A stretch of DNA of 61,466 nucleotides from Methanomassiliicoccales archaeon (lineage in GTDB: Archaea > Thermoplasmatota > Thermoplasmata > Methanomassiliicoccales > JACIVX01), in contig JAWCLO010000002.1 in the NCBI GenBank assembly GCA_038850735.1, forward strand, positions 169,902 to 231,367. The letters are read 5' to 3'. The position numbers were made by a program, and so were the translations under genes. The stretch's first letter is position 1; the number at the start of each line of letters is the position of its first letter. Shown in pieces: positions 58,543 to 60,973 of the stretch. The notes below the pieces were generated by a model, which saw only the letters and a list, made by a program, of their open reading frames with translations, made no database searches and had not been told where the DNA came from.

Positions 58543-60657
58543 GTGAAAAAGATGACCAAAATTCTTTGTGTGGCAGTGGCACTCATAATGGTGCTGGGGG
58601 TCTTTGCCGTCTTTATTCCGACGACAATAGCTGCCCCTTCCGATGAAGCAGTAATTGCTGATGTGGAAAAGATCGACATTGGTCCGCAGATACGAGCTGA
58701 ACTGCCTGATGTTGAGGCTGTAGCTGTCGCCGCTTCCCTTGCAGGTGCGTCGCCCATGATGCATGTGTTTGAGACCTATCATAACATTAGTGAGGTTGAG
58801 TGGTACTTCGCAGGATCATACAGTGGCGGATTTAAGCAATTTCAGCTGAGGGGTATCGGAAACCATTGCGAGGTTTGGGTGGCACTTGATTTGACATTCC
58901 CATCGGGTGATCCAAGGAATGCATACACATCGAGAATTACGATAACCGATGACCATGTGAACTGGATCATTAGCCAATTTGATAATAATATATACCCGAT
59001 TGAAACCGAGTATTTTTCCGAGCCTCCACCACTAGATGGATCTAACGCGTTACTTAGAGAGTGGGGCTATCCCTGCTTTAATGAAACAGAAGACGCTGGC
59101 AGAGTTATGATCATGATTTTCAACATAAGAGATTCAAACTACTACAATCCCTCGTATCCCTACTATATAGCGGGATTTTACAGCCCAACCCTGTGTGCAT
59201 ATTATGACAGAAATATAATCAACATTGATTGCTGGGATTGGGATAACAGAACTGGACCGAATTCTTCAAGACCTTGGGTTTACGAAAGCACGGTAGCGCA
59301 TGAATACCAGCATTTGCTGCACGATTATCTTGATCCAGATGAGGACACATGGCTGAACGAAGGTTGTTCGATGTACTCAGAAACACTTTGTGGATACGGC
59401 ATTCCTTACGACTACTTTGCAAGATACCTCTACACGCCTGATAACTCTTTAACGGAGTGGGGAGATCAAGGGGATATCAACATCCTTGCAGATTACGGAG
59501 CAGCGGCATTATTTATGATTTATTTGAATGACCACTTTGGAGGATCCGACCTTATCTCGGAGCTTGTAAGAAGCGAGCTGAACGGAGCTGCTTCCGTCAA
59601 TGAAGCACTGCTCGCAAGGAATTATACAGATTGGGATTTCGATAAGGTTTACAGAGCGTTCTCCTTGGCAAACCTTATACGTTCAGATGCAATTGGTGAC
59701 GGTCTCTATACTTATGAAACCATCGATGTAAGCATGTTACCGACGTTGACAACTCTTGTCTATGTTCCATATCATGGTATCGTCCAACAGTCAAGCTATT
59801 TCGGTACTACTTGGACATACGATGGTTATGACACTGGAGTAACTGACTTAGGCTCCTACGGGACAGACTACATAGTTGTGCCGACTTGGTTAAGAGATGA
59901 GACTACGCTGATGAGCTTGTTCTTTGACGGCGATGATGTAGCGTTAATTGGCTGGGAAATGACTTACGGATGGGATGGTTGCTGCTGGTATTCCGGTGCT
60001 TCCGATTTGAGAGATGTCAGCCTTGTGGGTACTGCAGATCTCATTGGAATGGAGGAGGCAACCCTTACATTTGATACATATTATGAGATCGAAGAAGGAT
60101 GGGACTTCGGCTTCGTGCAGGTCTCAACTGATGGCGGTAAGACTTGGGTTTCGCTGGAAAACGAATACACAACAGATGAAGCTGATCCAGATGCACATCC
60201 GGCGATCGTTGAAAATCTTCCAGGTCTGACTGGATATTCCGAAATCATCGTTACAATGTCTTTCGATCTTTCCGAATATGTAGGTCAGGAAATCATGTAT
60301 CGGTTCAGATACATGACAGACTGGTCTTATACAGAATGGGGATGGCTGATCGACAATGTCTACATTAATGATGAACTTGTCGATGACGGTGGCGATACAA
60401 TTTCTACGCTGAAACCTGTATATCCAGACAGTAACTTCATGATTACAATATATGCGCCCCAACAATACTCCAATGGCAACTGGATTGGTCTACCGTTGCT
60501 GATGGATATCAATATTGATCATGCCGACGAAACGGTCATCAGAAGCGTTGCGAGTCTACTGTCGGTCTATGACTACTTCTACATCATCGTTACTGCAACA
60601 CAGGGTCCGGTTGACTACAACTTTGGCATAGCTTTGAATGCACAGATGGTTGCTTGA
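58543..60657 (+). CDS. Secreted zinc metalloprotease (M30/M6-like)
   Basis: A secreted protein of 704 residues. A signal peptide occupies about residues 1-30 (KKMTKILCVAVALIMVLGVF, cleaved near TTIAA). The zinc site is H253-E254-x-x-H257 in VAHEYQHLLHDY, with the likely third ligand E273 in WLNEGCSMYSE, as in the hyicolysin (M30) and related families. The C-terminal part (about 470-640) resembles the immune-inhibitor-A/MAM-type beta-sandwich (FGFVQVSTDGGKTW, GWLIDNVYIND). It should degrade extracellular protein. The start is GTG, chosen because AGGAGGGG lies seven bases upstream. Poly-T terminator follows. Confidence 0.8.
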   Translation: MKKMTKILCVAVALIMVLGVFAVFIPTTIAAPSDEAVIADVEKIDIGPQIRAELPDVEAVAVAASLAGASPMMHVFETYHNISEVEWYFAGSYSGGFKQFQLRGIGNHCEVWVALDLTFPSGDPRNAYTSRITITDDHVNWIISQFDNNIYPIETEYFSEPPPLDGSNALLREWGYPCFNETEDAGRVMIMIFNIRDSNYYNPSYPYYIAGFYSPTLCAYYDRNIINIDCWDWDNRTGPNSSRPWVYESTVAHEYQHLLHDYLDPDEDTWLNEGCSMYSETLCGYGIPYDYFARYLYTPDNSLTEWGDQGDINILADYGAAALFMIYLNDHFGGSDLISELVRSELNGAASVNEALLARNYTDWDFDKVYRAFSLANLIRSDAIGDGLYTYETIDVSMLPTLTTLVYVPYHGIVQQSSYFGTTWTYDGYDTGVTDLGSYGTDYIVVPTWLRDETTLMSLFFDGDDVALIGWEMTYGWDGCCWYSGASDLRDVSLVGTADLIGMEEATLTFDTYYEIEEGWDFGFVQVSTDGGKTWVSLENEYTTDEADPDAHPAIVENLPGLTGYSEIIVTMSFDLSEYVGQEIMYRFRYMTDWSYTEWGWLIDNVYINDELVDDGGDTISTLKPVYPDSNFMITIYAPQQYSNGNWIGLPLLMDINIDHADETVIRSVASLLSVYDYFYIIVTATQGPVDYNFGIALNAQMVA

Positions 60658-60837: not shown

Positions 60838-60847
60838 AATATTTATC
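60838..60847 (+). promoter_or_regulatory. TATA box of tRNA-Val
   Basis: AATATTTATC centred 28 bases before the first base of the tRNA (60871). Confidence 0.55.
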
Positions 60848-60870: not shown

Positions 60871-60973
60871 GGGCTCATGGTCTAGTGGTCATGAGTTGGC
60901 CTGACATTTGGGCCGACTGGCATACAACGCCCTTACACGGCGTAGATCCCCGGTTCGAATCCGGGTGAGCCCA
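60871..60973 (+). tRNA. tRNA-Val (anticodon TAC) with a 30-base D-arm intron
   Basis: Acceptor GGGCTCA pairs with TGAGCCC (60966-60972), the T arm is CCCGGTTCGAATCCGGG, and the anticodon stem ACGCC/GGCGT closes the loop CTTACAC, anticodon TAC (reads GTA). The discriminator is A and CCA is not encoded. The gene is 103 bases; removing 60894-60923 leaves a normal 73-base tRNA, with D-stem sequence CATGACAACG restored. The insertion folds into a bulge-helix-bulge: GTCA (60888-60891) with TGGC (60918-60921), bulges TGA and ATA, and a 7-bp stem GTTGGCC/GGCCGAC. Confidence 0.92.
60894..60923 (+). other. Non-canonical tRNA intron (between positions 23 and 24)
   Basis: Cutting each 3-base bulge after its second base, as the archaeal splicing endonuclease does, releases 30 bases (60894-60923) and joins ...CATG to ACAACG.... 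Most archaeal tRNA introns are at 37/38; this one interrupts the D stem. The stem has seven pairs (one a T-G wobble) with a 9-base loop. Confidence 0.85.

What the first reader, a model, noticed from the sequence alone, without database searches (positions are those of the whole stretch)
60871..60973. tRNA-Val(TAC) interrupted in the D stem by a BHB intron
The gene is 30 bases too long for a tRNA-Val. The excess folds with flanking exon bases into a textbook bulge-helix-bulge: 4-bp central helix GTCA/TGGC, 3-base bulges TGA and ATA, and a 7-bp intron stem. Cutting in the bulges restores a normal 73-base tRNA. Introns between positions 23 and 24 are unusual; non-canonical positions usually go with a broad-specificity splicing endonuclease.
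Basis: partly seen in the sequence, partly recalled or inferred. Interest (0 to 1): 0.72.

Follow-up and report, generated by a model that had tools for sequence, protein, structure and literature searches.

The report
Valine tRNA split by D-stem intron
In this methanogen-lineage archaeon the only gene found for one valine tRNA is interrupted inside its D-stem by a 30-base intron, one of at least eight introns at unusual tRNA positions in a genome whose single splicing enzyme belongs to a type that reviews say handles only the usual kind.

Summary
The window lies in a Methanomassiliicoccales genome, and 60871-60973 is its only detectable tRNA-Val(UAC) gene. A 30-nt intron (60894-60923) sits between positions 23 and 24 and has a strict 3-4-3 bulge-helix-bulge core. 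Relatives settle it: six other genomes carry an intron at the same place with different sequence and covarying helices, and other genomes of the order have the exact empty site.

The genome has one EndA, a 352-aa two-repeat protein of the alpha'2 class, with no insert at the CSL/ASL site that marks broad-specificity enzymes; 11 relatives that could be checked lack it too. Yet this genome has eight non-canonical introns in seven tRNA genes: Val-UAC, Leu-CAA, Thr-GGU, Thr-CGU, Ala-CGC, Lys-CUU, and two in Lys-UUU. A T-loop (59/60) intron pattern occurs in 226 of 400 genomes sampled from the class.

Reviews say alpha'2 euryarchaea have only canonical introns, so this is a clear exception. The Val intron has at most a 2-bp exon-side helix, which makes it a good test substrate. 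The kind of element is known; its pairing with a loopless alpha'2 enzyme appears unreported in the papers I could search.

The parts
60840..60846 (+). TATA-like box TATTTAT, centred about 28 bases before the tRNA start (candidate promoter)
   Evidence: read from the sequence; not tested
60871..60893 (+). 5' exon of tRNA-Val(UAC), positions 1-23
   Evidence: paralogues L013, L015 and orthologues with the empty site
60888..60891 (+). central helix, exon strand GTCA
   Evidence: covariation
60892..60894 (+). 5' bulge TGA; predicted cut after 60893
   Evidence: TGA in all seven genomes
60894..60923 (+). 30-nt intron between positions 23 and 24
60895..60901 (+). inner intron stem, 5' arm GTTGGCC
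60911..60917 (+). inner intron stem, 3' arm GGCCGAC
60918..60921 (+). central helix, intron strand TGGC
60922..60924 (+). 3' bulge ATA; predicted cut after 60923
60924..60973 (+). 3' exon of tRNA-Val(UAC), positions 24-73, anticodon TAC

Best explanation
This is a functional, intron-interrupted tRNA-Val(UAC) gene. The transcript folds a bulge-helix-bulge across the D-arm/intron junctions. The cell's only detectable splicing endonuclease, a two-repeat (alpha'2) EndA that should act as a homodimer, cuts in the two bulges after 60893 and after 60923, and RtcB probably joins the exons into a 73-nt tRNA that reads GUA codons. The enzyme most likely recognises the strict bulge-4bp-bulge core wherever it lies in the tRNA, so no broad-specificity loop is needed. 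Shown here: motif, covariation, empty sites, single gene, EndA type, presence of RtcB. Inferred: actual cleavage, exact cut sites, which enzyme acts, and that the gene is needed.
For: Exact motif and normal 73-nt product; chance rate about 5e-5; intron at the identical site in seven genomes of four families with covarying helices, 91.4% of cells paired against 14-33% for slid partners, covariation 0.438 against at most 0.095; exact empty sites in other genomes of the order and in the Val(GAC)/Val(CAC) paralogues; no other Val(UAC) gene; one EndA, alpha'2 layout, no CSL/ASL insert; RtcB present; seven further non-canonical introns in the same genome with strict cores. A homodimeric EndA of the same class, from Ferroplasma, cuts a minimal BHB at 30 C in vitro (PMC8707768).
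Against: No RNA data. The outer exon-side helix is only 2 bp (1 bp in two relatives), G009 has one mismatch in the central helix, and the MFE fold prefers a one-base 3' bulge; published opinion is that alpha'2 enzymes cut such relaxed motifs poorly or not at all (PMC6379350). The genome is a 98%-complete draft, so a second EndA or a second Val(UAC) gene could be missing.
Confidence: 0.85

Rival explanations
1. The intron is real and spliced, but by a broadened enzyme: either this alpha'2 EndA has gained tolerance for HBh' motifs by a route other than the CSL/ASL loop, or a second subunit not found in the draft genome helps.
For: The Val, Leu(CAA) and Thr(GGU) introns have only 0-2 outer pairs. 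The order has a conserved lysine after the YG motif at the loop site, YGK, where A. fulgidus has YGS.
Against: No second EndA-like protein in G000 or in any relative searched. The YGK lysine is absent in family f14 genomes (YGS) although that family has T-loop intron patterns, and it also occurs in relatives without the Val intron.
Confidence: 0.25
2. The gene is a decaying pseudogene with a hairpin insertion, and Val(UAC) function is supplied elsewhere.
For: Standard programs misannotate the 5' half.
Against: Insertion at an identical site in seven genomes of four families with compensatory changes; all mature stems intact; no other Val(UAC) gene found.
Confidence: 0.02
3. The insert is a long natural D-arm extension that stays in the mature tRNA.
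For: The insert is a stable hairpin in place.
Against: It interrupts the D-stem strand itself, keeps BHB geometry rather than sequence across genomes, and is absent from close relatives.
Confidence: 0.02

Closest known systems
Non-canonical BHB tRNA introns of Thermoproteales, Thaumarchaeota and other archaea (Marck and Grosjean 2003; Sugahara 2008; PMC3218864, PMC4090602)
   Same: Small BHB introns outside 37/38, including 20/21, 22/23, 25/26 and 59/60, with 3-nt bulges and a 4-bp helix.
   Different: Those hosts mostly have (alpha-beta)2 enzymes with a specificity loop. Position 23/24 is not among those named in PMC4090602 (its list ends with 'etc.').
alpha'2 EndA of Archaeoglobus fulgidus and Thermoplasma acidophilum, listed as 'narrow' (PMC6379350)
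   Same: Single-chain two-repeat enzyme with no CSL/ASL.
   Different: Such hosts are reported to carry canonical introns only; this genome has eight non-canonical ones.
Korarchaeum cryptofilum alpha2 EndA with non-canonical introns (PMC4033280)
   Same: alpha2 enzyme plus non-canonical tRNA introns, described there as the only such archaeon.
   Different: The Korarchaeum enzyme is reported to bear the specific loop; this one does not.
Methanopyrus kandleri and Methanothermobacter, euryarchaeal methanogens with multi-intron tRNA genes (PMC4033280)
   Same: Methanogens with unusual tRNA introns; Methanopyrus EndA also lacks the loop (PMC12397907).
   Different: Thermophiles; the Methanopyrus enzyme is an (alpha-beta)2 heterotetramer.

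Membership tests
Archaeal BHB tRNA intron | Two 3-nt bulges on opposite strands separated by a 4-bp helix at the exon-intron junctions | tested here: met
Archaeal BHB tRNA intron | Removal restores a normal tRNA, with empty site in relatives | tested here: met
Archaeal BHB tRNA intron | Exon-side helix h next to the 3' bulge (complete hBHBh') | tested here: inconclusive
   only 2 bp, 1 bp in two relatives
Archaeal BHB tRNA intron | Precise excision in vivo | not testable with these tools
   no RNA data
alpha'2-type EndA | Two EndA repeats in one chain, only EndA gene in the genome | tested here: met
alpha'2-type EndA | Catalytic Tyr-His-Lys in the second repeat | tested here: inconclusive
   YSDLRSRG, YGSHFRVY and VKKEILL align with the catalytic-repeat segments of solved enzymes; residues not individually assigned
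Broad-specificity EndA with CSL or ASL | Insert of about 10 residues with a conserved Lys at the site marked by the A. fulgidus/CSL chimera 3p1y | tested here: not met
   FYGKKIGDALQLS against FYGSEKGDLVTLS, no insert in G000 or in the 11 relatives covering the site
(alpha-beta)2-type EndA | Separate alpha and beta subunit genes | tested here: not met
   one ORF holds both PF01974 matches
epsilon2-type EndA (ARMAN) | Three fused units in one chain | tested here: not met
   352 aa with two PF01974 matches; ARMAN-2 enzyme has 395 aa and aligns over one unit only

The most novel reading that the evidence does not exclude
A loopless alpha'2 EndA processes relaxed D-arm introns at positions far from the anticodon in Methanomassiliicoccales and much of the class, so the accepted link between non-canonical introns and heterotetrameric or loop-bearing enzymes is not general.
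Probability: 0.35. Interest if true: 0.65.

Novelty: new variant of a known kind. Interest (0 to 1): 0.52.

Why it matters
Reviews state that alpha4 and alpha2 enzymes of Euryarchaeota go with canonical introns only, and that Korarchaeum, with its extra loop, is the sole alpha2 exception (PMC4090602, PMC4033280). Here members of a whole order with a loopless alpha'2 enzyme carry conserved introns in D stem, D loop and T loop, and a T-loop pattern reaches 226 of 400 class genomes. That makes the co-evolution rule directly testable with one enzyme and one pre-tRNA. Practically, ARAGORN and the Rfam tRNA model miss or mangle several of these genes, so genomes of this group can look as if they lack essential tRNAs.

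Tried and rejected
The first Val pattern had a gap one base too long and missed the window's own gene; corrected. The 23/24 search over 400 class genomes gave two further hits, G054 and G288, whose matched sequence lacks the tRNA context; taken as chance. ARAGORN intron mode mis-assigns anticodons for several of these genes. An automatic strict-versus-relaxed comparison by position gave Fisher p = 0.039, but three Val genes were mis-split, the genomes are related and detection favoured strict motifs, so it is only a suggestion. Literature searches for tRNA introns in Methanomassiliicoccales or Thermoplasmata found no report of this; the library lacks many subscription papers, and GtRNAdb could not be consulted. 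Val(UAC) genes of family f2 were not resolved by my patterns, so its state is unknown. The class-wide T-loop figure is a pattern count: of ten loci checked with a simple cloverleaf scorer, four resolved cleanly as tRNA-Lys(TTT), several others showed a Lys(TTT) anticodon arm with a further D-loop interruption, and the rest were not resolved.

Full report
WHAT IS THERE. The window is contig 2, bases 169902-231367, of a 1.66-Mb draft genome, 98% complete. Its EndA protein finds only Methanomassiliicoccales-type relatives among named genomes. At 60871-60973 the sequence holds a tRNA-Val(TAC) gene with a 30-nt insert between positions 23 and 24. The insert and flanking exon bases form a bulge-helix-bulge: bulges TGA and ATA, central helix GTCA/TGGC, and an intron stem GTTGGCC/GGCCGAC that can extend to 10 bp. 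Cutting TG^A and AT^A leaves a 73-nt tRNA. The two other valine tRNAs of the genome, GAC and CAC, have the same D-arm uninterrupted and carry ordinary 37/38 introns. No other Val(TAC) gene was found.

IS IT MORE THAN CHANCE. Shuffling the intron letters gives such a motif at the required sites at a rate of 5.1e-5. The stronger evidence is comparative. A pattern scan of relatives gave the intron in G002 (same genus), G008, G009 and G027, and a wider scan added G136 and G141: with the window's genome, seven genomes in four families (f1, f3, f4, f5). The introns are 29-32 nt and differ in sequence, but the 5' bulge is TGA in all. The central helix changes as GTCA/TGGC, GTCA/TGAC, GTTA/TAAC and GCCA/GGGT, the last with one A-G mismatch. 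On an alignment of the core and its neighbours, 91.4% of cells pair against 14-33% when partners are slid, and the covariation score is 0.438 against at most 0.095. Genomes of family f6 and several of f3 have the precise empty site, for example L060 GGTTATGACAACGCCC. The intron was therefore gained or lost within the order.

HOW UNUSUAL THE MOTIF IS. The core is strict, but the exon-side helix has only two pairs, G18-C25 and U16-A26, and one in G027 and G141. The MFE fold of the whole pre-tRNA keeps the central helix and 5' bulge but uses a one-base 3' bulge. Introns in the D loop of Thr(CGU) and Ala(CGC) and in the T loop of the lysine tRNAs use the D stem or T stem as outer helix, so they are complete hBHBh' motifs. 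The Val intron interrupts the D stem itself and cannot do so.

THE REST OF THE GENOME. A strict BHB enumeration plus a cloverleaf score over all tRNA hits gave these non-canonical introns in the window's genome: Val(UAC) 23/24; Thr(CGU) and Ala(CGC) 20/21; Thr(GGU) D loop; Lys(CUU) 59/60; Leu(CAA) at the end of the D loop; and Lys(UUU) with two, D loop and 59/60. That is eight introns in seven genes. Many recur at the same positions in G002, G008 and G027 with different intron sequences, and Arg(UCU) in G002 has both a 37/38 and a 59/60 intron. A pattern for T-loop 59/60 introns matched 226 of 400 genomes sampled from the class, with few reversed-pattern control matches, and almost none in families f18, f22, f30 and f33. 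Ten hit loci were checked: four resolved cleanly as Lys(TTT), and others showed Lys(TTT) anticodon arms with a further D-loop interruption.

THE ENZYME. The genome has one EndA: 352 aa with two PF01974 repeats, scoring far above the cut-off for TIGR00324 and best for a full-length PRK09300 model, though below that model's own cut-off. It aligns over most of its length with 5x89 and with the A. fulgidus alpha'2 enzyme. At the place where the A. fulgidus chimera 3p1y has a crenarchaeal-type insert, this protein has none, nor do the 11 relatives and 9 named-genome loci whose sequence covers the site. Twelve of thirteen relatives searched have a detectable EndA, the thirteenth being an incomplete draft, and no genome showed more than the two repeats. 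In the wider class, four genomes from families nearly free of T-loop introns have a decayed first repeat, that is one PF01974 match or a marginal second (G168, G231, G324, G158), whereas all eleven genomes checked from other families have two. This is a correlation confounded by descent. RtcB, the likely ligase, is present.

AGAINST WHAT IS PUBLISHED. Reviews say Euryarchaeota with alpha4 or alpha2 enzymes have one canonical intron at most per gene (PMC4090602), that these enzymes cut only canonical BHB motifs, and that Korarchaeum is the only alpha2 archaeon with non-canonical introns, its enzyme bearing the specific loop (PMC4033280). The T. acidophilum enzyme is listed as narrow, and only (alpha-beta)2 and epsilon2 types as broad (PMC6379350). 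Opinions differ: PMC8707768 holds that homodimers also cut BHL-like motifs and shows that the Ferroplasma homodimer cuts a minimal BHB at 30 C. Three thermophilic methanogens were already known to have some non-canonical introns (PMC3218864), so euryarchaeal occurrence as such is not new. No paper found in the searches describes Methanomassiliicoccales.

MECHANISM. The simplest account is that the homodimer recognises a strict bulge-4bp-bulge anywhere, so introns can spread to D and T loops without a change in the enzyme. All eight non-canonical introns here keep that core, while about half of the canonical ones do not, which would fit an enzyme that is tolerant only at 37/38; detection bias towards strict motifs limits this point. 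The Val, Leu(CAA) and Thr(GGU) introns, with 0-2 outer pairs, are the ones that would need more tolerance. Whether the enzyme has gained it is open. Cleavage itself has not been shown.

VERDICT. The kind of element is known. The surprise is the setting: a conserved set of non-canonical introns served, as far as can be seen, by a loopless alpha'2 enzyme.

Noticed in passing
L206 (G000:C5:45391-45661): tRNA-Lys(UUU) gene with two non-canonical introns of 30 nt each, one in the D loop and one at 59/60; missed by ARAGORN and by the Rfam model at its cut-off.
   Followed up: partly
L205 (G000:C1:62792-63060): tRNA-Leu(CAA) with a 25-nt intron at the end of the D loop; also in G002 (L140) and G008 (L168), absent in G027 (L172).
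   Followed up: partly
G000 tRNA set: Genes for tRNA-Trp(CCA), Arg(UCU), Arg(CCG) and Leu(UAG) were not found; they may lie in assembly gaps or be hidden by further unusual introns.
   Followed up: no
400 class genomes: Families almost free of T-loop introns (f18, f22, f30, f33) are those whose sampled EndA has lost or decayed its first repeat.
   Followed up: partly
EndA alignment: A lysine directly after the YG motif at the CSL/ASL site (YGK) is invariant in the order, where A. fulgidus has serine.
   Followed up: partly
window 58543-60657: Large secreted-looking protein with an InhA-like MAM domain and a HEYQH metalloprotease-like motif, directly upstream of the tRNA gene.
   Followed up: no
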